Part shown: positions 2,022 to 52,786 of the stretch, piece after piece
Position numbering within the stretch: the stretch's first letter is position 1
Layout of the letters: each line of letters starts with the position of its first letter
Assembly (NCBI RefSeq): GCF_900116175.1
Contig: NZ_FPCH01000003.1
Coordinates: forward strand, 124,001-188,000
From: Hyphomicrobium facile
Lineage (GTDB): Bacteria; Pseudomonadota; Alphaproteobacteria; Rhizobiales; Hyphomicrobiaceae
Direction: 5' to 3'
DNA length: 64,000 bases
Made by a program: the position numbers and the translations under genes
Notes under the pieces: generated by a model
What the model was told of the DNA's origin: nothing
The model's database searches: none
The model's input: only the letters and a program-made list of their open reading frames with translations

Positions 2022-3386
2022 TTAATTTGATCTAAATTGAGTATTTCCAGACTCTTTATGCGCGTGCCGTAAGGCGGCGTTTGCCGGATTCGAGCCTTTG
2101 TTCACGTGTTTGCGCGCCAATCGCCGGTCGCGCAATTTCAATAGCGGCAAGATCCAATGGGCGAGGCGAATCTCGCGACGCGATTTTTCCGGATCGACCA
2201 GATGTGTCGTCGGCAATCGCTGCGTGAAAGAACTCTCCATGAGAGTTCCGAGAGGAAGCGTAAGCTCGTCCTGCAGCGTGATCATGCGCGCATAGAGATC
2301 GGCCAGCGGCGTAATGAGGCGACCGAAGCCATTTCGCGCCTGAGCCCAGCCGACGATATAAAGTCCGCGAATGCCGGCCGGGAATGCGCCGCCGTAAACC
2401 TGCACCACGCCGTCCTTCACCTTCACGAGGCCATCGCGAAGAAATGGGAACGACGTATTGAAGCCCGTTGCGGCGACGATCAGATCGTACTCACCCGTCG
2501 TGCCATCGACGAACGTCACAGTATTCCCGTCGACACGATCAATCCCCGGTCTCGGGTTGACGCGTCCGAGGCGGATCGCGTTGAGAAGGTCGGTTCCGAA
2601 TGCCGGGTGGCGATCAAAGATCTTGTGGTTCGGCGTTTGCAGACCATAGCGCCGGTAATCGCCGATACTGACGGCGACGATCGATTTCAGAATTGCGCGC
2701 TGAAGAAATATCGGCAGTCCCCAAATCGGAATATCCGTCAGAGGGCGACCTAGAAAGGTTTTCGGCAAATACCAATAACCGGTTTGCAGGCTGATATCGC
2801 AGGCTCGGCCGAAACGACCTGCGTCACACGCCATGTCGACACCGGAATTGCCGCCGCCGATGACAAGCACGCGTTTGTCCTGGAGCTGCTCCGGACCGAC
2901 GTAATCCTTGGAGTGCAGAATTTCGCCGGAGAAGTGGCCGCGGAATTTGGGATAGCGCTTGTCCCAATGATGGCCATTGCAGACGACGACGCCTTTGTAT
3001 TTGCGTTCCTCGCCATCTGCGAATTTGACGTTCCAGTTGCCGCCGCTGTCGGGCGCCGCGAACGCCACGCTCTTGTTGAACTCGCTCGACGCGAGGAGCC
3101 CGCGATCTTCGGCGAAGGCCGTCAGATAGGCGAGCATCTGGTCGGCTGACGGGAAATCGGGATAATCCGCGGGCATCGGATAATCGGTGTATTCCGTCGC
3201 CTTCCTGGAAGAGACGATGTGCGCGTGCCGATAAACGCCGTGAAGCCAGTTACCGCCCACACCGGAAGCGGAATCGACGAGGTCGAAAGGAATACCGTGA
3301 CGCTTCAATGCCGACGCCATCGCGAGACCGACAGGTCCTGCGCCGATCACAAGGTGGCGCTCGAGCGTGCTTATTCCTTCGCTCAT
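2022..3386 (-). CDS. Flavin-containing monooxygenase (FMO/trimethylamine-monooxygenase-like)
   Basis: 454 residues from the ATG at 3386, which has AAGGA about 10 bases upstream; an ATG at 3419 would add 11 residues. An FAD-binding GxGxxG (GAGPVG) lies at residues 15-20. The class B monooxygenase fingerprint FRGHFSGEILHSKDY (FxGxxxHxxxY) is present near residue 160, and a second dinucleotide fold GGGNSG near residue 180. Such enzymes use NADPH and O2 to oxygenate N or S atoms of small amines, sulfides or ketones. The C-terminal 60 residues are basic and variable. In a methylotroph an amine or sulfide substrate is attractive, but the sequence alone does not set the substrate. It stands alone, with about 230 bases without a gene on the 5' side. 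Confidence 0.85.
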   Translation of the reverse strand: MSEGISTLERHLVIGAGPVGLAMASALKRHGIPFDLVDSASGVGGNWLHGVYRHAHIVSSRKATEYTDYPMPADYPDFPSADQMLAYLTAFAEDRGLLASSEFNKSVAFAAPDSGGNWNVKFADGEERKYKGVVVCNGHHWDKRYPKFRGHFSGEILHSKDYVGPEQLQDKRVLVIGGGNSGVDMACDAGRFGRACDISLQTGYWYLPKTFLGRPLTDIPIWGLPIFLQRAILKSIVAVSIGDYRRYGLQTPNHKIFDRHPAFGTDLLNAIRLGRVNPRPGIDRVDGNTVTFVDGTTGEYDLIVAATGFNTSFPFLRDGLVKVKDGVVQVYGGAFPAGIRGLYIVGWAQARNGFGRLITPLADLYARMITLQDELTLPLGTLMESSFTQRLPTTHLVDPEKSRREIRLAHWILPLLKLRDRRLARKHVNKGSNPANAALRHAHKESGNTQFRSN

Positions 3387-3618
3387 TCTACAAATATTCC
3401 TTCGTCGAGGCTGATGCACACGTCCTTAGCAAACTGCGTTCGAAGCGTGGGGGTCCATTCGAAGAGGTGGTAACTTGTCGAAGAGGTGTTAACCGGGCCT
3501 CGATACATCATTAAGGGGGCGCAAGGCGAGCGCAGGATCGTCGCAAAGCGCGGCGAGAGCTGCCACTCTCGCGCTACCATACGAAAAGAACGCGCATTTC
3601 TTGGTTACCGGGGTGGGC

Positions 3619-4884
3619 CTATTCGGCCGCCGCACCACCGGCAATTTCTGTAACGCCGAAGCGGCGCTGAATGTAATCTTCGACGATCGCTTTGAAATCG
3701 CCCGCGATATTCGGTCCGCGGAGCGTCATCGCCTTCTTGCCGTCGATGAAGACGGGCGCAGCGGGGGACTCGCCGGTGCCCGGAAGCGAAATGCCGACAT
3801 CGGCGTGCTTGCTTTCGCCCGGGCCGTTCACGATGCATCCCATGACAGCGAAATTGAGCGTCTCGACGCCGGGGTACTGCGTTTTCCAATCCGGCATACG
3901 ATCACGGATCATATCCTGGATGTCGCGAGCGAGTTCCTGGAACACGGTTGACGTCGTGCGGCCGCAACCGGGGCAAGCCGCGACGACGGGCACGAACGAC
4001 CGCAATCCCATCGTCTGCAGCAGTTCCTGCGCGGCGCGGACTTCCTGCGCGCGGTCGCCACCGGGTTCCGGCGTCAGCGAATAGCGGATCGTGTCGCCGA
4101 TGCCCTGCTGCAGGAGAATGCCAAGCGCCGCCGACGAAGCAACGATGCCTTTCGATCCCATGCCCGCTTCGGTGAGACCGAGGTGGAGCGCGTAACGGCT
4201 GCGGTCGGCAAGCATCGCGTAGACGGCAAGGAGATCCTGAACCGATGACACCTTGCCCGACACGATGATCTTGTCGCGTCCTAGCCCCATCTCCTCCGCG
4301 CGTTCAGCGGAAAGGAGCGCCGATTGCACCATCGCCTCGTGCATGACGCTGCGGGCCGATTTCGGCTCCGGGGAATTAGCGTTCTCGTCCATCAGATGCG
4401 TCAGCAGCTCGGCGTCGAGCGAGCCCCAGTTCACGCCGATGCGGACGGGCTTACCGTGCTTCAACGCCGTCTCGATGATGGCGCCGAACTGACGGTCTTT
4501 TTTGTCTTTGAAGCCGACGTTGCCGGGATTGATACGGTACTTGTCGAGCGCTTCGGCACAAGCAGGGTTATCGCCCAAAAGCTTGTGGCCGATGTAATGG
4601 AAGTCGCCGATGAGAGGCACGTTGACGCCGCGCGCGCGCAACTGGTCGCGAATGTGGGGAACGGCCTTCGCAGCCTCATCACGATCGACCGTGATGCGGA
4701 CGAGTTCGGACCCGGCCCGCGCCAGGTCGGCCACCTGCTTCACTGTCGACGCGATATCGGCGGTATCGGTGTTGGTCATCGATTGAACGACGACCGGCGC
4801 ACCGCCGCCGACCTGGACACCGCCGACGCTGACCGCGACGGTCTCGTGCCTGGCTTTCATCGTGATGCTGCCGCCGTGCGACAT
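3619..4884 (-). CDS. ispG: 4-hydroxy-3-methylbut-2-enyl diphosphate synthase (MEP pathway)
   Basis: 421 residues. Reduces methylerythritol cyclodiphosphate to hydroxymethylbutenyl diphosphate with a [4Fe-4S] cluster. The N-terminal TIM-barrel part is recognisable from [10 protein letters not shown]. Cluster ligands are seen in CPGCGRT and in [10 protein letters not shown], whose final Glu is the fourth ligand in this family. The middle region between the barrel and the cluster domain matches the proteobacterial form. The gene starts 36 bases after the znuB stop on the same strand, so it may be read through from the zur-znuCB transcript. Confidence 0.96.
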
Positions 4885-38950: not shown

Positions 38951-40123
38951 TTGACAAGCCGTGCCCCGGAGAAAATCGACGTCCTTTGGTTTTTGCCGAC
39001 GCACGGCGACAGCCGTTATCTCGGCACGACCGTTGGCGGCCGCGCGGTGGACTTGCCATACTTGCAGCAAGTCGCACACGCGGCCGACACGCTCGGTTTC
39101 TACGGCGTGCTTCTGCCGACCGGCAGAAGCTGCGAAGACAGCTGGATCGTGGCGGCCGCGTTGGCGCCGCTCACCCAGAATTTGCGTTTCCTTGTTGCCG
39201 TCAGGCCAGGTTTGCAACCCCCGGCGTTCGCCGCGCGAATGACCTCGACGCTCGATCGCATTTCCAATGGCCGACTGATGATCAACGTCGTCACGGGCGG
39301 CGATCCTTTGGAGAACAAGGGCGACGGATTGTTCGCCAGCCACGAAGAGCGCTACGAGATCACGCGAGAATTCCTTGACGTCTACAAGCGGATTCTTTCG
39401 GGCGAGACCGTGGACTACCACGGCAAGCACATCCACGCTGAGGATGCGCGCCTTCTGTTCCCGCCGGTCCAAAGCCCCTATCCGCCGCTTTACTTCGGCG
39501 GCTCTTCGGATGCGGCCAACAACGTGGCTGCGACCAGCATCGACAAATATCTGACCTGGGGCGAGCCGCCTGCCAGCGTCGCAGAGAAAATCGAAACCGT
39601 TCGAAAACTCGCGAAGGCGCAAGGCCGCGAGGTTACGTTTGGCATCCGCCTGCACGTCATCGTTCGTGAGACCAACAAGGAAGCTTGGGAGGCAGCAGAG
39701 TCTCTCATCCAATATCTCGACGACGATACGATTGAGGCGGCGCAGAAAGTGTTCTCGCGCATGGACTCCGTCGGCCAACAGCGGATGCGGCAGTTGCACG
39801 GGGGGAGCCGCGGAAAGCTCGAGGTCAGTCCAAATCTATGGGCGGGCGTCGGGCTTGTCCGCGGCGGCGCCGGCACCGCGCTTGTCGGCGATCCCGATAC
39901 GGTCGCTGAGCGAATTGACGAATACCGCCGCCTCGGCGTCGATAGCTTCATTCTCTCGGGCTATCCGCATCTCGAAGAAGCTTATCGCGTTGCAGAACTG
40001 TTGTTGCCGAAGCTGCCGCTTCGCCATGAAACAAAACGTGCCGGCCTCTCTTTGAACACGGGACCGTTCGGTGAAACCATTGCCGGTGATCATCGGCCAG
40101 CAGCGCGCGTGGGCCAATCATGA
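38951..40123 (+). CDS. ssuD: FMNH2-dependent alkanesulfonate/methanesulfonate monooxygenase
   Basis: 390 residues from a TTG at 38951, with GGAG 6 bases upstream. Luciferase-like enzyme that splits alkanesulfonates to aldehyde and sulfite. SsuD/MsuD hallmarks, as I recall them: [37 protein letters not shown] and [12 protein letters not shown]. It is the third enzyme of the dimethylsulfone route (as MsuD) or a general alkanesulfonatase; sequence alone does not fix chain length. Its end overlaps the next gene by ATGA. Confidence 0.94.
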
Positions 40124-41517
40124 ACGCGGAAGTGCGGCGGCCGACCGTCGCAATCGTCGGCGGCGGCTTTAGCGGTGCGGGAGTCGCCTATCATCTGGCG
40201 TGGCTCGGGGCACCGATGAAAATCATCGTCTTCGAGCCGCGCGCTCTTCTCGGCGCGGGTCTCGCGTATGGCGGGAGTGATCCGAACCACCGCATCAACG
40301 TGCCGGCGGCCAAAATGAGCCTCATCCCTGCAGATGAGGGACACTTCCTACGCTGGGTCAACGAGACGGGGGCGATCTCAGATGATCCGGACGCTATCGC
40401 CGGCGACGGATCGGCGTTTCCTCAGCGATCCGTCTTCGGACGCTACGTGAACGAACAACTTCGTCCGTTCCTCGAGTCGGGAGCCGTCGAGCACGTCCGC
40501 GAGGCCGTCACTCAGATCAAGAAGCAGGGACGCCGCTGGACGGTCGAAAGCGACAATACATCGGTGCATGCGGACTTTGTGGTTATCGCCACAACGCATC
40601 CCGAGCCGCGCCTTCCCTCCCCTCTCTTGAGCACACTTGAGAACGACCCGAGATTGATTGCCGATGCGACGGCCCCTCAGGCGCTCGCAGGGGTCAAGAG
40701 GCACGAACGTCTGCTGATCGTCGGCACGGGGCTAACCATGGCCGATATCGTGGCCACCCTCGACGCGCAAGGACACTACGGAAAAATAACTGCGATCTCC
40801 CGCCGTGGCCTTCGCTCGAAGACGCACGCCAAGACCGCACGGGATCCTTTTGGCGATTTTTCCAATCCCTTACCGCAAAGCGCCTCTGAGCTATTGCGGA
40901 GAGTACGGGAGACCGTCAGCCGGGCCGCCGCTCAAGACATACCGTGGCAGGCTGTTATCGATTCGCTGCGCGTTCATGCGCCGCGTTTTTGGCCCGCGTT
41001 GCCGGTTGCCGAGCGACGCCGCATCGTTCGCCATCTCCGGGTCTTTTGGGATGTTCACCGTTTCCGCATCGCCCCACAACCGGAAGCCATCATTCAGAAG
41101 CGCGTCGATGCGGGTGTTCTGCAATTCGTCGCTGCTTCGATAGAGAATCTGGAAGCCTCGGCGAGTGAATTGGAAGTCGTGCTCCGCATTTCGAAATCAC
41201 AGCGGAGGCTCGCTCGCACCGTCGATCGCATTATCCTTGCGACTGGCCCCAACCATGGTGCGATCCTTTCAAGTCAACCATTTTTGAAGGGTTTGTCGGA
41301 CGACGGCTTCTTATGCGCAGATCCTCTTGGACTCGGGATCGCCTGCGACGCTCAGGGGCGGAGCTTAAATATCCAAGGCCATCCGGATGAGACGCTTTGG
41401 ATTGCCGGACCTCTTGCTCGCGCAGCAGTCGGCGAGCTGATGGGAATGCCGCAAATCGCAGAGTTTGCCGCGCGCGTCGCCAACAATGTGTTCGAAGCCG
41501 CGCGCGAATACGCATGA
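40120..41517 (+). CDS. FAD/NAD(P)-binding protein (FAD_NAD_binding_9-like)
   Basis: 465 residues. N-terminal dinucleotide fold with [10 protein letters not shown] near residue 13, a second one ([10 protein letters not shown]) near residue 205, and a late A-T-G-P-N-H motif. Such proteins are often annotated as HcnB-like or hydroxyacylglutathione-type oxidoreductases, but their reaction is mostly unknown. It overlaps ssuD by four bases (ATGA), so it is made together with it and is part of the organosulfur operon. It might reduce flavin or oxidise an intermediate. Confidence 0.87.
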
Positions 41518-41582
41518 ACATTCCGGATGACGCCTGAGCGTCGGTGATCGCCCGACTTTTGTCCGCTAGCCAAGCATCCGGG

Positions 41583-41885
41583 TCACGCGGGGAAGCAAAG
41601 CCAAGCGCCCAAGCAGGTTTTGGGTGTCGTCACTTTGCACGCCGTCTGCGAGGAGTGACACGTCGTTGTACCTGAGCCGTCTTCGCACTTCGTGTGGACC
41701 GGACCCTTGCCCACGCGGCCCTGCCCATAGATGATGTTTGCAAGACCGTGCGTCGAAAAGAGCACGGCGATATCGTGGGTCACGGCTTCGCCGACCGCTC
41801 CAACCTTGACGCAATCAGCCTGAGCCGTTGCTGAAAGTGCGCAGAAGGCCGCCGTGGCGACTAAGCCTAGTTTCAAAGAACGCAT
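41583..41885 (-). CDS. Small secreted cysteine-rich protein
   Basis: 100 residues from the ATG at 41885, which has GGAGG just upstream; an ATG at 41909 would add 8. A signal peptide (M-R-S-L-K-L-G ... A-Q-A) is followed by about 78 residues with six Cys and several Thr/Gly, suggesting disulfides. No family recognised. It faces the FAD protein tail to tail and lies next to an integrase fragment. About 113 bases upstream of its start the minus strand reads TGGCAAATGCGGCA, resembling one arm of the operators at 42323 and 46009. Confidence 0.65.
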   Translation of the reverse strand: MRSLKLGLVATAAFCALSATAQADCVKVGAVGEAVTHDIAVLFSTHGLANIIYGQGRVGKGPVHTKCEDGSGTTTCHSSQTACKVTTPKTCLGAWLCFPA

Positions 41886-42071
41886 TTGCCCCTCCAAAAA
41901 ATGATTCATCCCGTGTGGAAACTAGTTGAGCGCGTAGCCCTCGACAACGGAATCGGCCCGCTGCAAGCCCGTTCTCCCGAAAGGAACCGGAAAGCGTGCC
42001 GCATTTGCCACCCATCCGGCAGCCGGTAATGCCCGGCTCGGCTCATGCGGAGTAAAACCTCATGCCATTGC

Positions 42072-42272
42072 CTAGCCGCTCGGCGCAACGTCATCGATGC
42101 GGACGGCTACGACGTCACAGCCACGCAGCTTGCTATCGATGGCGAGATTGAACAGTGCGAGATCGCGCGTTCGCCCCGTCATCTGAAGCTTGGTTCTTAT
42201 CGACCAGACCTGACTGGGCCTGAGAGGCGACGATTTAAAGCGCGTTCGCGATAGAGCTTTGCCGCTCTTCAT
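42072..42272 (-). pseudogene. Truncated tyrosine-type site-specific integrase
   Basis: A 66-residue open frame. Residues 17-64 read like the part of phage-type integrases just before and including the first catalytic Arg: R-P-S-Q-V-W-S-I-R-T-K-L-Q, R-T-R-D-L-A-L-F-N-L-A-I-D-S-K-L-R-G-C-D-V-V. A stop follows where the family normally continues, and the rest of the catalytic domain (second Arg, His, Tyr) is missing. It is therefore dead. It marks an old integration or recombination event at the edge of the organosulfur region. Confidence 0.75.
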
Positions 42273-42322
42273 CGGGTCGCACGCTTGTGCACTTCGTATC
42301 GATGACTTCAAAAGCGGACGGT

Positions 42323-42338
42323 TGTGGCAAATGCCACC
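42323..42338. promoter_or_regulatory. Palindrome TGTG-N8-CACC, candidate Crp-type operator
   Basis: TGTGGCAAATGCCACC lies 98 bases upstream of the ATG at 42437. It is nearly the same as the site at 46009 in front of the paralogous gene; GGTTGTGGCAAA and a following GCG are shared. Crp proteins with an R-E-x-x-x-R recognition helix, as in the local regulator at 46563, bind TGTGA-N6-TCACA-like sites. Confidence 0.5.
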
Positions 42339-42436
42339 GCGCGGACTTCGATTTCTCGACACCGTGGTTTCATCAGGCACTTGCTTCAGGACCCATGGAG
42401 CGATGCGCCGGACCAAGCGGAAAGGAGAAACGCGCC

Positions 42437-42823
42437 ATGATGTCGATGACGAAAACTGTCATAGCTCTAGCCGTGGGCCTCTGTACCACGCACGTGAACA
42501 AGGCTGCCGAAGCTAACGATCCCACTGCCGCACGAGTGCTCAGACCGAACCAGAGCGTCGCATTCCCGATCGAAGCCAAGGCTACCCTAAGCTATTTCAC
42601 GAATGAGGATCGGATCTGCAAGGCGACCATGTGGGTCGCCGCACCGCCAACGTGGCAAGCAAATGTCGCAACCTTCGCGACAACGAAGTACGAGGCCGAT
42701 ATCCCAGTCGGAAAATCGGGCATAATCGCGCCCGCGCCCGGCAAAGCATTCGCGTTCGAGTGTCAATCGGAAGCACGAACCATGACGATCCGTCCGCTTA
42801 GGCCCACGAGCCTGGAGCGGTGA
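42437..42823 (+). CDS. Small secreted protein, paralogue of the one at 46114
   Basis: 128 residues from the ATG at 42437 (AAAGGAG upstream); the frame is open to 42287, but that part contains the operator. Signal peptide of about 23-27 residues, then a beta-rich domain of about 100 residues with two Cys (I-C-K-A and F-E-C-Q). The pattern P-x-Q-x-x-A-F, Y-F-x-x-E-x-R-C-K, E-A-x-I/D and F-x-C-x-x-x-A-R-T-M is shared with the protein at 46114, including both Cys. The family is unknown to me. The pair flanks the cyclase gene and shares an upstream palindrome. Confidence 0.75.
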   Translation: MMSMTKTVIALAVGLCTTHVNKAAEANDPTAARVLRPNQSVAFPIEAKATLSYFTNEDRICKATMWVAAPPTWQANVATFATTKYEADIPVGKSGIIAPAPGKAFAFECQSEARTMTIRPLRPTSLER

Positions 42824-43107
42824 TCGAAGGCGTCGCTGTCTTGCCACTCGGGGGCGGCAACGCTTCCGGGTGGCAGTATCTGCTTTCGCAGCATCGCTGC
42901 GCCTGAGCGGTGAGACTTGCCACAAGATGAAAGAAATTTCGAAAAAAGCGAAATTAGGAAAGTTGACGACGAACGCCAACAAAACGCCGCCTCTTCGCAT
43001 TGGCCGATTGCTCGATTTACGCTTCCGGGCGTGCTAGCGTGACGCTCTTGCTTTAACGTACCGTACGCTGACGACCTGATGACTCTCCAAAAGTGGAGGC
43101 GGTCGGA

Positions 43108-45981
43108 ATGGACGACCGGGTCAAATCAAGTGAAGAGCTTCTGGAGGAGGTGGCCCGGCTTCGCGACAAGATCGCCGAACTGGAAGCACGTGGCCAGAAC
43201 CGGCAATCCGAAAGCGAACTGAAAAGTGCTCGAGAGCGCTTCGAACACCTGCTCGCGTCGAGCCCTGCCATTATTTACACGACGCTCGCCTCTGGAACTT
43301 ACGCATGCACCTACGTGAGCGAAAACATCCGCACGATTATGGGCTTCTCACCCGATGAAATGACGAGGGATGCAAAGTGCTGGCCGGATCAGCTGCACCC
43401 CGATGATGTTGAACGTGTTCTGAGCGAATTAGGCCCATTGATCGAACACGGTGGCGGAACGGTCGAGTACCGCTTCCGGCACCGCAAGGGGCATTACGTT
43501 TGGATCCAGGATAGCTTTAAGGTCGTCTATGATGAAACGAGCGCCGCGACAGGCGGGTGGCCGAGCAACGCAACTCGTCCTATCGAGCTCATCGGCGCCT
43601 GGGCCGACATCACGGAGCGCAAGGAGGCCGAGCAAGCGGCACTGCGGGCGAACGCCCAGCTCCAGGAAACCAAACGCTCGCTCTCGCGCCTGATTGAAAG
43701 CTCGCCCGACGCAATCATTTCGACAGATAAGGCCGGCCGCATCGTTCTCTTTAATGAAGGTGCAGAAACGCTTCTCGGCTATCGAGCCGACGAAGTCGTG
43801 GGGCAAAGTGTTTCTCGCATTTACGGCGGTGAGGCCGGAGCGAACGAAGTCTTGCGCGAAATGCGCAAGCGCGGCGGCACGGTATCCGGCTTCGATAGCG
43901 TTCTTTGGGCCAAGGACGGCACGTCGATTCCAGTGCTCATATCGGCTTCGATGCTCTTCGGCGATGACGGTGAGCAGATCGGCACCGTAGGCTTCGCGAC
44001 CGATTTGAGGGACCGCAAACGTTCGCAGGAAGAGTTGCAAAATGCCTATGACGAATTGGAGAAGCGAGTTGAAGAGCGGACGACGGAGCTGAATGAAGCG
44101 CGCGGTCGTCTCCAGTATCTTCTCACCGTGACTCCGGGGATCATGTACACAAATCAGGCGACGGACGGCTACAGATGCAGTTTCGTTAGTCGCAACATCG
44201 ATCCCATCATGGGCTTCTCGGAGTGGGAGATGCTCGAGGATCCGGAATTCTGGTTGAAGCGCGTCCATCCGGAGGACACCGAGCGAGTTTTTCAAGAAAT
44301 GGGGCCGCTTGTCGAGCAAGGCGGTGGCTCGATCGAATATCGCTTCCGGCACCGTGATGGCAATTACGTGTGGATTCAAGACACCTTCAAGGTCGTCGCA
44401 GATAGCGCCGGAAAGCCGCTCGAGATCGTGGGGTCGTGGGCGGACATCACGCATCGCAAGCAGGTCGAGCAGGCACTCGGCGAACGCATGGCGCTGATGA
44501 ACGACCTGCAGAACCTCGTCGCGGCGAGTCCCGCAGTCATCTACACGACGAAAGCCTCGGGCAATTTCGCCTGTACATTCGTCAGCGAAAACTTGAAATC
44601 GACGATGGGTTATGCGCCATGGGAAATGCGTGAGGACCCCAAATTCTGGCTGAAGCGGCTGCATCCCGACGATCTCGGCCGCGTATTCGATGAGCTGGGA
44701 AAGCTTATCGAGCAGGGCGGGGGAGCCATCGAATATCGCTTCCGGCACCGGCGCGGCCACTATATCTGGATTCAGGACACCTTCACCGCGACGAAAGACA
44801 AGGATGGCCATCCCATGGAGCTCATTGGCTCCTGGGCCGATATCAGTGACCGAAAAAAGATCGAGGCGGAGCTGAAGAGACTTGCGGGAGAGGTTGAAGT
44901 TCGCAACCGATTTATACGCGATACATTCGGCCGCTATCTGACGGATGAAGTCGTCACGACGCTTCTCGACTCCCCAAGCGGCATGCAGATGGGCGGCGAG
45001 AAGCGCAAAGTTACCATGCTCATGGCAGACTTGAGAGGCTTCACGTCGCTTTCGGAAAGCTTGGATCCGAAGTGGGTCGTGAACATGCTCAATCGCTACC
45101 TGTCGAGCATGGTAACGATCATAAAGAAATACGGCGGCACGATTGACGAGTTCATTGGCGACGCCGTGTTCGTCATCTTCGGCGCACCGACTTGGCACGA
45201 TGATGACGCTCAGCGGGCGGCGGCGTGCGCTGTCGAAATGCAGCTCGCGATGAAGACCGTCAATGAGCATAACCGGATCGATGGCCTCCCCGATATAGAA
45301 ATGGGAATTGGCCTGCACACGGGTCAAGTCATCGTAGGCAATATCGGGTCAGCCGAACGACTGAAGTACGGCGTCGTCGGCAGCCACGTCAATTTAACCT
45401 CCCGCATCCAATCGCTCACGGTCGGCGGGCAAATCCTGGCTTCGGAAAGCACGCGCCGCGAGGTTGGGACGATGCTCAAGATTGCGAAGCAGATGGAGGT
45501 ACGAGCGAAAGGATTCGAGCAGTCGATAACAATCTGCGAAGTCGTGGGCATAGGCGGCCCGCACAAGCTCATGCTCTATCAGTCGAGCGAACCTCTCGTC
45601 GATTTGGCTGAACCTCTTGAATTTACCTATCAGGTCCTCGAATCTGACATGCAGAGCGATGACGTCTTCGGTGGACGCTTTACGAAGCTTGCCTCGAAAC
45701 GAGCCGAAGCTCACTTGGCCAAACCGGTATCCGCTCTCTGCAATCTTAAGATCCGCATTCGGAACGGCGATAGTGGGTCTGCAACAGGAACTCTCTACGC
45801 AAAGGTCGTCGCAACGGGCTCGAGAAACGAGGTGACAGTGCACTTCACGTCGATGCCACGCGAAGAGGAAGCCGTTCTCCGGGCTTTGCGCGGCGAACCG
45901 AAAGAATGCGAGGCTGCTCCGCACCCGGCACCCTCCCAGTCGAATGGGGGGACCGGCGGCATTCAATTGGGTGCCGCCTAG
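43108..45981 (+). CDS. Four-PAS class III adenylate/guanylate cyclase
   Basis: 957 residues from the ATG at 43108 (GGAGG 8 bases upstream); a GTG at 43093 is possible. A short coiled coil is followed by PAS1 (about 44-171), PAS2 (190-304), a coiled coil, PAS3 (334-452) and PAS4 (466-586). Then comes the cyclase domain (596-817) with metal Asp residues in A-D-L-R-G-F-T and I-G-D-A-V-F and transition-state Asn and Arg in H-V-N-L-T-S-R. The last 130 residues may form a PilZ-like domain. PAS1, 3 and 4 are near copies of each other. There is no transmembrane helix, so it senses a cytosolic signal. It makes cAMP or cGMP, probably for the Crp-like protein 580 bases downstream. Confidence 0.92.
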   Translation: MDDRVKSSEELLEEVARLRDKIAELEARGQNRQSESELKSARERFEHLLASSPAIIYTTLASGTYACTYVSENIRTIMGFSPDEMTRDAKCWPDQLHPDDVERVLSELGPLIEHGGGTVEYRFRHRKGHYVWIQDSFKVVYDETSAATGGWPSNATRPIELIGAWADITERKEAEQAALRANAQLQETKRSLSRLIESSPDAIISTDKAGRIVLFNEGAETLLGYRADEVVGQSVSRIYGGEAGANEVLREMRKRGGTVSGFDSVLWAKDGTSIPVLISASMLFGDDGEQIGTVGFATDLRDRKRSQEELQNAYDELEKRVEERTTELNEARGRLQYLLTVTPGIMYTNQATDGYRCSFVSRNIDPIMGFSEWEMLEDPEFWLKRVHPEDTERVFQEMGPLVEQGGGSIEYRFRHRDGNYVWIQDTFKVVADSAGKPLEIVGSWADITHRKQVEQALGERMALMNDLQNLVAASPAVIYTTKASGNFACTFVSENLKSTMGYAPWEMREDPKFWLKRLHPDDLGRVFDELGKLIEQGGGAIEYRFRHRRGHYIWIQDTFTATKDKDGHPMELIGSWADISDRKKIEAELKRLAGEVEVRNRFIRDTFGRYLTDEVVTTLLDSPSGMQMGGEKRKVTMLMADLRGFTSLSESLDPKWVVNMLNRYLSSMVTIIKKYGGTIDEFIGDAVFVIFGAPTWHDDDAQRAAACAVEMQLAMKTVNEHNRIDGLPDIEMGIGLHTGQVIVGNIGSAERLKYGVVGSHVNLTSRIQSLTVGGQILASESTRREVGTMLKIAKQMEVRAKGFEQSITICEVVGIGGPHKLMLYQSSEPLVDLAEPLEFTYQVLESDMQSDDVFGGRFTKLASKRAEAHLAKPVSALCNLKIRIRNGDSGSATGTLYAKVVATGSRNEVTVHFTSMPREEEAVLRALRGEPKECEAAPHPAPSQSNGGTGGIQLGAA

Positions 45982-45982
45982 C

Positions 45983-46003
45983 AAACTTTTTCAAAGTTTT
46001 TTG
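45983..46003 (+). terminator. Likely terminator after the cyclase gene
   Basis: AAACTTT (45983-45989) and AAAGTTT (45993-45999) form a seven-pair stem with a 3-base loop, and T's continue the run. It begins directly after the stop codon. The stem is AT-rich, so it would be a weak terminator. Confidence 0.4.
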
Positions 46004-46008
46004 CGGGT

Positions 46009-46024
46009 TGTGGCAAAGCCCACA
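46009..46024. promoter_or_regulatory. Palindrome TGTG-N8-CACA, candidate Crp-type operator
   Basis: TGTGG-CAAAGC-CCACA has perfectly matching five-base ends and lies 90 bases upstream of the ATG at 46114. It differs from the E. coli Crp consensus only at the inner base of each arm (G/C instead of A/T). A near copy stands at the same distance before the paralogous gene at 42437. Confidence 0.55.
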
Positions 46025-46113
46025 GCGTGTGTTGGCAAAGACCTTCATGATCCATCCAGCATCGAAAGACGATGCGAACCGCAACACAACCGATGGACAT
46101 AAGGAAAATTGCC

Positions 46114-46503
46114 ATGGAAAAGATCACTTCGCTGCTGAAAGCAACGCTCTTGGCCGCCACGATTTCCGCATCGGCGACGGGAATTGCACTGGCGGGAAGC
46201 CCAGCCAGTGGGACGGTCATGAAGCCGTTGCAAGGGATCGCCTTCGCGGCAGGTCCGAAACACGCAGTTGGATATTTCTATCCTAAAGAGAACCGGTGCA
46301 AGCTGGTGGTGACCGTTGCCGATACCCCAAACGGGGCGGGCGAAACCTTCGATGCTCTTCGCCATGAAGCAAATATCGGGCCTGGCGATTTCGATCAGTT
46401 CAACCTGAGCAGCGGCGAGACGCTCGAATTCAACTGTTCAACTGACGCGCGGACAATGGTGATCAAATCCGTCGTGAACATCGCTGCCGGAACAGTCAAG
46501 TGA
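46114..46503 (+). CDS. Small secreted protein, paralogue of the one at 42437
   Basis: 129 residues from the ATG at 46114, with AAGGA 8 bases upstream; an upstream extension to 46072 is not needed. A signal peptide ends near A-L-A-G (residue 26-28). The mature domain has two Cys (N-R-C-K, F-N-C-S) and the same arrangement of motifs as the protein at 42437. It carries its own copy of the TGTG-N8-CACA palindrome. It lies between the cyclase and the Crp-like gene, reading in the same direction as both, so co-regulation is likely. Function unknown. Confidence 0.78.
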   Translation: MEKITSLLKATLLAATISASATGIALAGSPASGTVMKPLQGIAFAAGPKHAVGYFYPKENRCKLVVTVADTPNGAGETFDALRHEANIGPGDFDQFNLSSGETLEFNCSTDARTMVIKSVVNIAAGTVK

Positions 46504-46562
46504 TCGACTTTCTACGGCACTTTCCAATGTGAGTTTCAGACCGCGATTTAGGAAGACGTGAG

Positions 46563-47261
46563 ATGAAACAAGCGACTTCGACCTCATCCGTACCTTCATT
46601 TGCAAAGATTGAGCCGTTCCGCGCCTTGCCTGCGGAAGCAATCGAACGCGTGCAGCAGCATTGCAACTGGAGGCATTACGAGACAGGCGAACTGATCCTC
46701 GACTATCTCGATAAAACGGATGAGGTCTTCTTCATCACAGAAGGCGAAGTTCGAGTGAGTATCTATTCGATCGACGGGAAGGCAATTACGTTCAGTGATC
46801 TCAAAGCGGGCGACATGTTCGGCGAGATCTCCGCGATCGATCACGGACTACGGTCTGCGAGCATTGAGGCGCGATCGCGATGCTGCATTGCTTCGATGAC
46901 TGCCCTCGCCTTCAGTTCATTGTTGAAGACAGAGCCTGATCTGACATTCGAAATGCTGCTACGCTTTGCTCGAAAGATCAGGGAGCTGACGAACCGCGTC
47001 TATGAATTCAGCAGCCTGGACGTTGCCAATCGCACCCGGGCAGAACTTTTACGCCTCGCACGGCTAGGTGCACGTCAGGGTCAATGCGTAAAGATAGAGC
47101 CAGCACCCACCCACGCCGAAATTGCGAGCCGCATAAGTACGCATCGTGAGGCTGTGACACGCGAATTGAACCGTCTTTCCAAGCTTGGCATTGTCGAGCG
47201 GCGAGGCACGTTACTCATCGTAAAAGACATCGAAAGACTAGAGGATATGGTCGAGGATTAG
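46563..47261 (+). CDS. Crp/Fnr-family transcriptional regulator (Crp-like)
   Basis: 232 residues, start with AGGAAG upstream. Cyclic-nucleotide domain (about 15-130) with the phosphate-binding cassette G87-E88 ... R97-S98 (F-G-E-I-S ... L-R-S-A-S), matching the residues that hold cAMP in E. coli Crp. The C-terminal winged helix has a recognition helix with R195-E196-x-x-x-R200, the Crp-type R-E-x-x-x-R. There are no Fnr-type N-terminal Cys ligands. It is thus probably a true cAMP (or cGMP) receptor. It is next to a cyclase gene and to two genes preceded by TGTG-N8-CACA-like sites. Confidence 0.9.
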   Translation: MKQATSTSSVPSFAKIEPFRALPAEAIERVQQHCNWRHYETGELILDYLDKTDEVFFITEGEVRVSIYSIDGKAITFSDLKAGDMFGEISAIDHGLRSASIEARSRCCIASMTALAFSSLLKTEPDLTFEMLLRFARKIRELTNRVYEFSSLDVANRTRAELLRLARLGARQGQCVKIEPAPTHAEIASRISTHREAVTRELNRLSKLGIVERRGTLLIVKDIERLEDMVED

Positions 47262-47886
47262 TTAGGCTTTCCATCACGTGCGTTTTCTTTATAGGAGCAG
47301 TTGTATTCACACGGCCCGGCTGAGACCATCGATGATCCGCTCTTGGCCCGGAGCGCCATCAGGCTGATGGCGGCTTTCGGGCCATCGCGACAGAATGCGA
47401 ACGGCTGAAGATCGATCGACAGTCGATCCCAGAAGCCGATGATAGAGATTGGGAGCTGTGAGCCAGCGGTGTTTTAGAAAGCATCCGCTTCCAAAAAACA
47501 AGTTGCCGTCAAGAGAGCTTCAAGATTGGCACTCAATGACCCGAAGCTAAATTTCTGATCAAGTATGCCGACCGCTGTCCGGTGCTTTGAAATCTAGTAA
47601 AATCGAAAGAAAGTGAACGCTGCATCAGCGACGCCGCATCAAAATGCGAGCGGTGCCCTTAGATTTTTTTCTGCTCGAAGACCGTTCCCTGAGGGAACGA
47701 TCTAGAAGGCCTGATATTGTACCTCCCTATAGCATATGGGCCATGCCTCTGGGGATTACGCCAGCAATTGGCAAATCAATTGTACGAAAATCTACCGGAG
47801 GATTGTGGGTTCGCGACGCATTGAACGCGACACGAGCCTACGCGGGGTGACGCATGACGTGAAGTTCACCCAAAAGGAGTTCTCCC
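47262..47886. other. Long region without a convincing gene
   Basis: About 625 bases with lower GC and no frame of good codon use. It holds a perfect inverted repeat CGTTCCC-TGA-GGGAACG at 47683-47699 with a T-run just before it. It may be decayed DNA; a short minus-strand frame at 47307-47501 is not recognisable. The right end contains GTGAAGTTCAC (a palindrome) immediately before the ribosome site of the next gene. Confidence 0.4.
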
Positions 47887-48216
47887 ATGAGACACTCGAT
47901 CATCAGCCTTCTCATTGCAGCCTCCATAGTAGGATTGCCAACGGGCCGTGCCCTTGCCACAAACCCGCATACCGGTGGCACGACCGGCCAGCCAAGTCAG
48001 TCGTGCGAGGACACCGGTGGCACCGGTGTCAGCACGTTCCGCCCGGGTAACTCTTTTTTCGCGCCGGGTTCGCCTTTCAATGATGTGACACCAGGCAACT
48101 CCACCTTCCACTATGCGGGCCAGCCGGGCACGCCGTCGGCTGCGAACGGAAACCCCAAAGCTGTGGGCCAATACGATGTGGCTTGCTTCCAGCAATCGCA
48201 GAAGCAGCTTCCATAG
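47887..48216 (+). CDS. Small secreted Gly/Thr/Pro-rich protein
   Basis: 109 residues, start with AAAAGGAG 7 bases upstream. A signal peptide covers about 1-24 (A-L-A cleavage). The mature part has repeated G-G-T and P-G-x-S/T-x-F turns (F-R-P-G-N-S-F-F-A-P-G-S-P-F) and two Cys (S-C-E-D and V-A-C-F). It is low in charge and probably extended. No family recognised. It is the last of the short exported proteins near the cyclase/Crp genes and lies just upstream of the MacAB-type pump. Confidence 0.7.
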   Translation: MRHSIISLLIAASIVGLPTGRALATNPHTGGTTGQPSQSCEDTGGTGVSTFRPGNSFFAPGSPFNDVTPGNSTFHYAGQPGTPSAANGNPKAVGQYDVACFQQSQKQLP

Positions 48217-48322
48217 TTTCATATTTTGAACGCATAGTTATTGAACGCGCGGGCGACGCTGCAAAAATTCTTATCGCCCTTCAGCGTCGTCTGCGCTCTT
48301 CCGCTCAACCGGGAGAAGTACG

Positions 48323-49687
48323 ATGTTGCGATTTACTGCCGTCGTTGCCGGAGTCTCCACACTCATTACTGGATTGACGTTCGCTCATAATGACGTTTTG
48401 CCGTCCCAGAAATTCATCACGGCGCGTGTGGAGCGCGGCACGCTATCCAAGACCATTACTGCTACCGGGACTGTCGAGGCGCGTCTAACGGTAGACGTCA
48501 GCTCACAGCTCTCCGGCCGTGTTGGGGGGGTATTCGTCAGTTTCAACGATACAGTTAGAGCGGGACAACCGATTGCGCGCTTGGACCGAGCAATTTTTGG
48601 AGCCCGCGTGACCGAGGCCGCTGCTGCGCTGAACGTCGCAACCGCCTCCACTGAGGTACAACAAGCAGCGGTCGCCCGAGCCGGCCTCGCGGTAAGCAGT
48701 TCGCGCACGGCACAAAAGTTGGCCGAGGCTCAATGCGAGGCAGCAAACGCCAGGCTGGCAGAAGCGGAGCGCGAGCTCAATCGCAAACTCGCCCTCTCAA
48801 AGACTGGTGTCGCATCTGAACGCGAACTCACTCAGACGCAGGCTCTCAAGGAAACGGCAGCTGCCGACGCAAAAGCTGCAGTCGAGGTGATTCATCTCAA
48901 AGAGGAAGCGGTCGCGATCGCAGAAGCCGAACTGCAAATGGCAGGCGCCGAGCTGCACAATGCGCAAGCGACCATCAAACAGCGGCAGGCGGCACTCGAT
49001 CAAGCGAGGCTCGACCTCGATCGCACCGTGCTTCGAGCTCCAATCAATGGCGTCATTTTGAAGAGAGACGTCAATCCCGGCCAAACGATCGCAGTTACAA
49101 TGGAGGCCAAGACGCTCTTCCAGATTGCGAACGACCTCAAGGAAATGGAAATTCATGCGAGGATCGACGAAGCCGACGTCGGCCAACTGAGGCCAGGGCA
49201 AGCGGCGACATTCACTGTCGATGCGTATCCGGATCGAATGTTCAGCGGAGAAGTCCAGCAAGTCAGAAAATCTCCCGAGACCACGCAGAACGTCGTGACG
49301 TATACGGCGATCATATCAGCCCAGAATCCCGATCTTTCACTTCTGCCAGGAATGACAGCAGCTCTTCGCGTTTCTGTAAGCGATGGCGTCGTGGCGCTGA
49401 AAATTCCGAATGAGGCACTGCGTTTTCGTCCGGTGGCGTTCAAGGCCGCGGACTCTTCGGCCCGTCGTCCGCTAACGCAAGACTTGACTGCCACAGGTGC
49501 CGGCTCGCCGGCCCTTGTCTGGATCCCCGACGGAGAGGGAGCCTCCTTGCCTATTGCCGTTCGTATTGGACCGCGAGACGCAAAAGGCGCGCTGCTGTTC
49601 GACGGTCCGCTGACAGAAGGCGAAGCGTTGATCGTCGGCGTACTGAGCCCAGAGCGCAACCTCGCCAATGCACAAATGGGCCTTTGA
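48323..49687 (+). CDS. MacA-type periplasmic adaptor (HlyD family)
   Basis: 454 residues, start with GGGAG upstream. One N-terminal membrane anchor, a first lipoyl half-motif (V-S-S-Q-L-S-G-R-V), a long Ala/Glu-rich alpha-hairpin (about 100-235), the second half (A-P-I-N-G-V-I-L-K-R), a beta-barrel and a membrane-proximal domain with an insertion near residues 375-400. It joins a MacB-type ABC transporter to an outer-membrane channel. Its stop lies inside or next to the start of the macB-like gene, so the two form one operon. Confidence 0.9.
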   Translation: MLRFTAVVAGVSTLITGLTFAHNDVLPSQKFITARVERGTLSKTITATGTVEARLTVDVSSQLSGRVGGVFVSFNDTVRAGQPIARLDRAIFGARVTEAAAALNVATASTEVQQAAVARAGLAVSSSRTAQKLAEAQCEAANARLAEAERELNRKLALSKTGVASERELTQTQALKETAAADAKAAVEVIHLKEEAVAIAEAELQMAGAELHNAQATIKQRQAALDQARLDLDRTVLRAPINGVILKRDVNPGQTIAVTMEAKTLFQIANDLKEMEIHARIDEADVGQLRPGQAATFTVDAYPDRMFSGEVQQVRKSPETTQNVVTYTAIISAQNPDLSLLPGMTAALRVSVSDGVVALKIPNEALRFRPVAFKAADSSARRPLTQDLTATGAGSPALVWIPDGEGASLPIAVRIGPRDAKGALLFDGPLTEGEALIVGVLSPERNLANAQMGL

Positions 49688-52699: not shown

Positions 52700-52786
52700 T
52701 GGTGCGGACGGAGGGACTCGAACCCTCACGACGTTACCGTCTCAGGATTTTAAGTCCTGTGTGTCTACCGGTTCCACCACGTCCGC
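52700..52786 (-). tRNA. tRNA-Leu (anticodon TAA)
   Basis: Read on the minus strand, the 87-base sequence begins GCGGACG and ends CGTCCGC-A-CCA with a perfect acceptor stem, so CCA is encoded. The anticodon loop is CTTAAAA (anticodon TAA, reads UUA). The long variable arm is present and the T loop reads GTTCGAGTC. The 3' end faces the accessory region to its left, the usual integration side for tyrosine recombinases. Confidence 0.95.

What the first reader, a model, noticed from the sequence alone, without database searches (positions are those of the whole stretch)
42323..47261. Self-contained cyclase/Crp circuit with duplicated operator and paralogous secreted targets
A four-PAS class III cyclase and a Crp-type regulator lie within 5 kb. 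Two paralogous secreted proteins, one upstream of the cyclase and one between it and the regulator, carry TGTGGCAAATGCCACC and TGTGGCAAAGCCCACA at 98 and 90 bases before their starts. Only about 22 bases are conserved upstream, so the site is selected rather than left from a recent duplication. The regulator keeps the cAMP-contact residues and the R-E-x-x-x-R recognition helix that reads TGTG...CACA. This looks like a private second-messenger system driving exported proteins of unknown role.
Basis: partly seen in the sequence, partly recalled or inferred. Interest (0 to 1): 0.72.

Follow-up and report, generated by a model that had tools for sequence, protein, structure and literature searches.

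The report
Transferable cyclic-GMP switch for exported proteins
A 5-kilobase block in a Hyphomicrobium-like bacterium carries an enzyme that seems built to make the messenger cyclic GMP, a DNA switch that should read it, and that switch's binding sites in front of small exported proteins; three strains carry the block in different surroundings, so a whole signalling circuit may travel as one piece.

Summary
P1, cyclase, P2 and Crp recur in the same order in 3 of 22 genomes of the genus, with different flanks: a cassette. The specific operator TTGTGGCAAANNYCAC (<=1 mismatch) has 11 places in those 3 genomes, 9 of them in the cassette (3 each); the reversed control has 2. The looser TGTGG-N6-CCACA is not enriched in window or genome.

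The tacit cAMP reading is probably wrong. The cyclase is nearest to Cya2, a guanylate cyclase, and keeps its specificity-setting glutamate; 78 of 86 cyclase rows read have lysine there. It falls in a clade of 34 rows (30 E, 0 K; 100/99). A separate lysine-type cyclase lies beside another Crp in 20 of 22 genomes. The cassette Crp keeps GE, RS and RExxxR but has L/T at T127/S128, so its ligand is unproven.

Best reading: a transferable, self-wired, probably cGMP-driven CRP circuit controlling its own exported proteins and probably crp. Nearest in principle: CgrA of Rhodospirillum centenum. No binding, nucleotide or expression data exist; the exported proteins' role is unknown.

The parts
42285..47298 (.). 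Cassette shared with L061 (G308) and L062 (G306); the flanks differ in the three genomes
   Evidence: blastn of window 41000-48500: matches from window 42285 (L061) or 42321 (L062) to 47287 or 47298 at 79-88% identity. Seven flank proteins of the window have no match (E<=1e-4) in L061 or L062, which hold 2.2-3.6 kb to the left and 8 kb to the right. G+C 0.562 against 0.587-0.598 elsewhere in the window.
42322..42338 (+). Operator 1, TTGTGGCAAATGCCACC, 98 bases before P1
   Evidence: 16 of 17 columns identical in three genomes, at 98/97/96 bases.
42437..42823 (+). P1, small protein with a signal-peptide-like start (by eye)
   Evidence: no Pfam or NCBIfam family.
42909..42925 (-). Operator 3, TTGTGGCAAGTCTCACC; in L062 it lies 80 bases before paralogue P3, which window and L061 lack; 167-182 bases before the cyclase start
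   Evidence: 15 of 17 columns identical in three genomes.
43108..45981 (+). Four-PAS class III cyclase of the Cya2 (guanylate cyclase) type; possible upstream start GTG at 43093
46008..46024 (+). Operator 2, TTGTGGCAAAGCCCACA, 89 bases before P2
   Evidence: 16 of 17 columns identical in three genomes, at 89/90/88 bases.
46114..46503 (+). P2, paralogue of P1, signal-peptide-like start (by eye)
46563..47261 (+). CRP-type regulator (cNMP_binding + HTH_Crp_2), 59 bases after P2, probably one transcript with P2

Best explanation
A transferable, self-wired CRP circuit, most likely run by cGMP. The four-PAS cyclase senses an unknown cue and makes a cyclic nucleotide, most likely cGMP. The neighbouring CRP binds it, sits on TTGTGGCAAA-NN-YCAC palindromes and activates the genes of the small exported proteins P1 and P2 (and P3 where present). 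As crp follows P2 by 59 bases, operator 2 probably also drives crp (feedback); operator 3 may also act on the cyclase. The regulon is essentially the cassette, and it runs beside the genome's core lysine-type cyclase/Crp pair. Shown: gene order, conservation, operator positions, residue types, different flanks. Inferred: cGMP, binding, activation, export.
For: Same four genes and operators in 3 genomes with different flanks. Operator nearly confined to the cassette: 9 of 11 places with <=1 mismatch in 3 genomes, control 2. The own paralogue outside the cassette (L112) and 29 homologue loci (of 35 matches outside the own genome) show no site better than shuffles. Cyclase nearest in the PDB to 6FHT (phytochrome-cyclase fusion) and 2W01; Cya2 is a guanylate cyclase and E488K gives adenylate cyclase activity (PMC5995499, passages); this cyclase has that E. 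E/G in the three cassette cyclases, K in 78 of 86 rows; clade of 34 rows (30 E, 0 K) at 100/99. CRP keeps GE, RS and RExxxR. Core cyclase (K/D) beside a Crp in 20 of 22 genus genomes, with helix SRPKVNAA in the 6 core Crps aligned. Precedent: CgrA with cGMP binds TGTGA-N6-TCACA before its own cyclase cluster (PMC4681086, passages).
Against: No experiment. The CRP's ligand cannot be read from sequence: T127/S128 are L/T, which could also mean ligand independence; the core Crp, beside a lysine-type cyclase, lacks T-S there as well. Only three genomes hold the cassette and are 87-88% identical over most of it, so shared descent explains part of the conservation (leaders after the operators: 66 of 95 and 72 of 87 columns identical). 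Operator 3 has changed in the window. No promoter mapped. The operator pattern was written after seeing the cassette sites, and the looser palindrome is not enriched.
Confidence: 0.6

Rival explanations
1. The same local circuit, run by cAMP: the cyclase makes cAMP despite its glutamate, or the CRP answers to cAMP from the core cyclase.
For: The CRP's best PDB matches are E. coli CRP entries; GE and RS are kept; the genome has three other class III cyclases, all with K.
Against: E in place of K and membership of the E clade; T127 lost; the cassette carries its own cyclase wherever found (3 of 3).
Confidence: 0.22
2. The CRP is active without a ligand (as E. coli CRP variants at 127/128 and DdrI are said to be) and the cyclase signals to something else; the two are neighbours in one cassette but not one pathway.
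For: L/T at 127/128; the top PDB match, 1hw5, has L-A there (alignment; that it is an engineered variant is recalled). DdrI binds DNA without cAMP (PMC11253593, start of abstract in the listing).
Against: Phosphate/ribose contacts GE and RS are kept in all three orthologues; cyclase and CRP are together in 3 of 3 carriers.
Confidence: 0.12
3. The repeated block is a leftover of the duplication that made P1 and P2, or a site for another regulator, and the CRP is not involved.
For: P genes and sites always occur together in the cassette; leaders are conserved as well.
Against: P1 and P2 are only 31% identical and share nothing else upstream; the half-sites TGTG/CACA suit the RExxxR helix (established for E. 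coli CRP, recalled); homologues outside the cassette, without the CRP, lack the site.
Confidence: 0.06

Closest known systems
CgrA / Gcy cGMP system of Rhodospirillum centenum
   Same: Alphaproteobacterium; cyclase-subunit genes and a CRP homologue in one cluster; palindrome of the TGTGN-N6-NCACA type; feed-forward on its own cluster; a small ORF (RC1_3784) divergent from the cluster is 60-fold CgrA-dependent (PMC4681086, passages and section 9).
   Different: CgrA has a large regulon (295 ChIP peaks, cyst development) and gcyB-gcyC code for non-catalytic subunits; here one four-PAS Cya2-type cyclase, about three sites, a block with differing flanks, exported targets. Homology of RC1_3784 to P, and of CgrA to this CRP, was not tested.
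Cya2 of Synechocystis (guanylate cyclase, PDB 2W01)
   Same: Closest characterised catalytic domain; same E and G at the two specificity positions.
   Different: Cya2 has a CHASE2 input with a membrane part (PMC5995499, passages); here four PAS domains and a CRP neighbour.
Clr of Sinorhizobium meliloti
   Same: Alphaproteobacterial CRP-family receptor, GE/RS pocket; activated by cAMP and cGMP (PMC10127613, passages).
   Different: Clr has TT at the T127/S128 positions and another DNA motif; here L/T and TGTGG...CCAC.
XC_0250/XC_0249 of Xanthomonas campestris
   Same: Linked class III cyclase for cGMP and a cNMP-binding effector (PMC3770947, passages).
   Different: There the effector is a cNMP-GGDEF enzyme, not a DNA-binding protein.

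Membership tests
Class III guanylate cyclase (Cya2 type) | Class III catalytic domain over Pfam cut-off | tested here: met
   PF00211, 99.2 bits against 21.9.
Class III guanylate cyclase (Cya2 type) | Glutamate at the base-specificity position (E488 of Cya2) | tested here: met
   DEFIGD in the three cassette cyclases, aligned to 2W01.
Class III guanylate cyclase (Cya2 type) | GTP turned into cGMP | not testable with these tools
   Needs an enzyme assay.
Crp-Fnr superfamily | cNMP-binding domain plus Crp-type HTH over cut-off | tested here: met
   PF00027 63.1 bits (cut-off 27.5), PF13545 49.1 bits (cut-off 27).
cAMP-specific CRP (E. coli type) | NCBIfam equivalog cut-off for CRP (NF008732) | tested here: not met
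   86.8 bits against 266.
cAMP-specific CRP (E. coli type) | T127/S128 base contacts | tested here: not met
   L/T in the alignment.
cAMP-specific CRP (E. coli type) | RExxxR recognition helix for TGTG...CACA | tested here: met
   REAVTR against RETVGR.
CgrA-type cGMP circuit | Cyclase and CRP clustered, operator of CRP type before the cluster's genes | tested here: met
CgrA-type cGMP circuit | CRP activated by cGMP | not testable with these tools
   Needs a binding assay; CgrA's sequence was not compared here.

The most novel reading that the evidence does not exclude
A travelling 5-kb plug-in cGMP cassette: sensor-cyclase, a CRP that answers to cGMP with T127 replaced, private operators and private exported effectors, insulated from the host's core cyclase/Crp pair both by messenger and by operator, so that a whole second-messenger circuit moves between strains as a unit.
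Probability: 0.4. Interest if true: 0.7.

Novelty: new variant of a known kind. Interest (0 to 1): 0.52.

Why it matters
Few bacterial cGMP pathways are worked out, and what lets a CRP-type protein choose cGMP over cAMP is open. A compact circuit of one cyclase, one CRP, three sites and two or three targets, beside a separate lysine-type cyclase/Crp pair in the same cell, would make ligand choice and insulation of two cyclic-nucleotide channels directly testable, and would show a second-messenger pathway travelling as a unit.

Tried and rejected
The loose palindrome TGTGG-N6-CCACA as a regulon marker: not above control in window or genome. The pattern TGTGGCAAANNCCAC with <=2 mismatches: 71 places against 86 in the reversed control. 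Its two single-mismatch places outside the cassette: one inside a frame that I read as glmU, the other between the two longest plausible frames of its locus (names by eye).

Operators before P homologues elsewhere: 29 loci (L032-L060) of 35 matches outside the own genome (the other 6 were given no locus and not scanned) plus the own paralogue L112. Lowest shuffle fractions 0.085 (L038) and 0.105 (L037), shuffling two-base blocks: no support. In L035, L040 and L057 the P match was weak (E 0.33 to 3.3) and in L035, L040 and L059 no start codon was found, so those upstreams are unreliable.

A possible fourth site before the minus-strand frame 41583-41909 (GGTGGCAAATGCGG, about 42001-42014): outside the shared block and imperfect; not claimed.

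PilZ identity of the cyclase's C-terminal extension: E 0.05 alone, 2 of 12 members with best E 0.0054, fold model from 4 rows with mean pLDDT 38.3; left open. Fold of P: beta-rich, mean pLDDT 72.6 from 7 rows, best PDB E-value 0.26, nothing at E<=0.001; no function assigned.

Papers: PMC4681086 (passages and section 9), PMC10127613, PMC5995499 and PMC3770947 (passages only); PMC11253593 only in a search listing. Seven paper searches listed no paper that I could recognise as describing this cassette; the library lacks most subscription journals.

Full report
What is there. The window lies in a 4.43-Mb genome (G000:C3:124001-188000). One of the two records with the same cassette is named Hyphomicrobium sp. 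(L061), and its genome G308 is listed as same genus as the window's. P1 and P2 are 31% identical over 98 residues and have no family in Pfam at cut-off or in NCBIfam. The cyclase has four PAS stretches and a catalytic domain. The CRP has both diagnostic domains above cut-off.

Are the sites more than chance? The best ungapped match between the 250 bases before P1 and before P2 is the block GGTTGTGGCAAATGCCACCGCG / GGTTGTGGCAAAGCCCACAGCG. Of 1000 dinucleotide-shuffled pairs, 1 scored as high; of 934 random window segments set against the P1 upstream, 0 did. The looser motif TGTGG-N6-CCACA is not enriched: 19 places in the window against 17.0 expected, and 41 places in the genome with <=1 mismatch against 66 for the reversed control. 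The informative pattern is TTGTGGCAAANNYCAC. With <=1 mismatch it has 3 places in G000, all in the cassette; 4 in G306 and 4 in G308, three of each in the cassette; the reversed control has 2 in the three genomes together. The pattern was written after seeing the cassette sites, which inflates the contrast, but not the scarcity of sites elsewhere.

Relatives. All 22 genomes of the genus have some match to the CRP, but only three have this one: own, G306 at 91% and G308 at 88%; the other matches stand at 24-28%. A scan of genome contigs, which finds close relatives only, gave the same two (L062 = G306, L061 = G308 by coordinates) and then nothing above 36%. Of 103 genomes of the family, three have the cyclase (92-100%); the next best match is 43%. 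Both relatives carry P1 (73-75%), cyclase (93%), P2 (81%) and CRP in the same order. DNA identity runs from window 42285 (L061) or 42321 (L062) to 47287 or 47298 at 79-88% and stops there: seven flank proteins of the window find nothing in L061 or L062, whose left flanks are short (3.6 and 2.2 kb). In L062, P1 is separated from the cyclase by a metallo-hydrolase gene (2833-3696, minus) and a third paralogue, P3 (3880-4266, minus). G+C is 0.562 in the cassette against 0.587-0.598 in the rest of the window. The only tRNA in the window is at 52700. I did not search for mobility genes or boundary repeats, so how the block moves is unknown.

Footprint. Operator 1 is identical in 16 of 17 columns, 98/97/96 bases before P1; operator 2 in 16 of 17, 89/90/88 bases before P2. 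The leaders downstream are conserved too (66 of 95 and 72 of 87 columns), so conservation alone is not proof. At P1, however, the three sequences fall apart just upstream of the operator, and P1 and P2 agree upstream only at the operator. The third site (42909-42925, minus) is identical in 15 of 17 columns. In L062 it stands 80 bases before P3, oriented as the other two are before their genes. Window and L061 lack P3 but keep the site, 167-182 bases before the window's cyclase start. L061 has the full palindrome (TGTGGCAAATCTCACA), the window has changes. It may also serve the cyclase, or be a remnant.

Outside the cassette the link breaks. The own genome has another P paralogue at C5:1204766 (L112) without the site. 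Of 35 P matches outside the own genome in 297 genomes of the order (32 genomes with a match, own included), the 29 with a locus were scanned and none shows a site better than shuffles allow (a few upstreams unreliable, see Tried and rejected). The operator thus goes with the cassette, not with the P family.

Which messenger? The closest solved structures are 6FHT (a bacteriophytochrome-cyclase fusion) and 2W01, with E 2.9e-72 and 1.4e-61 against 6.3e-36 for the next. In the printed alignments 6FHT has K and 2W01 has E at the specificity position; the cassette cyclase has E. PMC5995499 (passages) calls Cya2 a guanylate cyclase and describes E488K as giving adenylate cyclase activity. Reading two specificity positions in 86 rows (several rows are the same gene) gave E/G in 5 (the window twice, G306, G308, and a Crocosphaera cyclase, L081), K in 78, N/S and D/S in one each, unread in one. 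In 398 genomes of the phylum, 50 (own included) had a match at E<=1e-45; of the 29 new loci, 26 have E, and one each N, D and A. So E-type cyclases are not unique to this cassette; they are absent from the other alphaproteobacterial rows read. A tree of 68 rows puts the cassette cyclases in a clade of 34 (30 E, 2 N, 1 A, 1 D, no K) at 100/99; all 33 K rows lie outside.

Neighbours of other E-type cyclases. L081's cyclase is followed by an Apyc1-like hydrolase and an MscS-type channel with a cNMP-binding domain; the CRP match that fetched L081 is that domain, not a DNA-binding CRP. In L213 a cyclase of this clade lies near two genes that I read by eye as a calcineurin-like phosphodiesterase and a cNMP-binding membrane protein. 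A CRP-profile search found such frames in 4 of the 29 phylum loci (L185, L200, L208, L210), which hold only about 1.5 kb on each side. This speaks for cyclic-nucleotide traffic in general, not for cGMP in particular.

The receiver. Against E. coli CRP the HMMER alignment keeps GE and RS of the phosphate/ribose pocket and the REAVTR helix (RETVGR in E. coli), but has L and T at T127 and S128. PMC10127613 (passages) names T127/S128 as cAMP contacts of CAP, and TT in Clr, which answers to both nucleotides. The residues neither prove nor exclude cGMP. The core pair is a contrast: in 20 of 22 genus genomes a CRP match of 24-28% shares its short locus with a cyclase (in G152 and G313 no cyclase was seen, and G313's locus is cut short). 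In these 20 the cyclase reads K/D, and the six core Crps that I aligned have the helix SRPKVNAA, without RExxxR. So the two circuits could be kept apart by operator even if messengers overlapped.

Mechanism proposed. PAS signal, cyclase, cGMP, CRP, activation at sites 80-98 bases before the start codons of P1, P2 and P3, with crp 59 bases after P2 and so probably under operator 2. P proteins have signal-peptide-like starts (by eye), two cysteines invariant in 7 sequences and a beta-rich model without PDB match. Messenger, binding, activation and export are inferences.

Comparison. In principle this works like CgrA of Rhodospirillum centenum, where a CRP homologue with cGMP binds TGTGA-N6-TCACA before its own cluster and a small divergent ORF is 60-fold CgrA-dependent (PMC4681086, passages and section 9). 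It differs in cyclase type, in the size of the regulon, in its occurrence as a block with differing flanks, and in the exported targets. I file it as a new variant of a known kind.

Noticed in passing
L062:2833-3696 (-): Metallo-beta-lactamase-fold hydrolase inside the cassette of one relative, between P1 and P3; NCBIfam matches to RNase Z and to a cyclic-nucleotide phosphodiesterase, all below cut-off. A candidate for ending the signal.
   Followed up: partly
window 45505-45978 and L081:5634-6071: C-terminal extension shared by Cya2-type cyclases of several families, with weak PilZ hits in 2 of 12 members: a possible link to c-di-GMP.
   Followed up: partly
L108 and L113 (G000:C5, about 502220-504183): Core K/D cyclase beside a Crp with helix SRPKVNAA; such pairs were seen in 20 of 22 genus genomes.
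   Followed up: partly
L188, L191, L204: E-type cyclase frames that run on in one frame into what I read as a calcineurin-like phosphodiesterase: making and breaking of the messenger in one protein.
   Followed up: no
window 40578-40593: A perfect TGTGGTTATCGCCACA inside the coding region of the gene at 40120-41517, outside the cassette; probably chance.
   Followed up: no
window 41583-41909 (-) and 47887-48216 (+): Two further small proteins with signal-peptide-like starts (by eye) on either side of the cassette, without Pfam or NCBIfam family and without a match in L061 or L062.
   Followed up: partly
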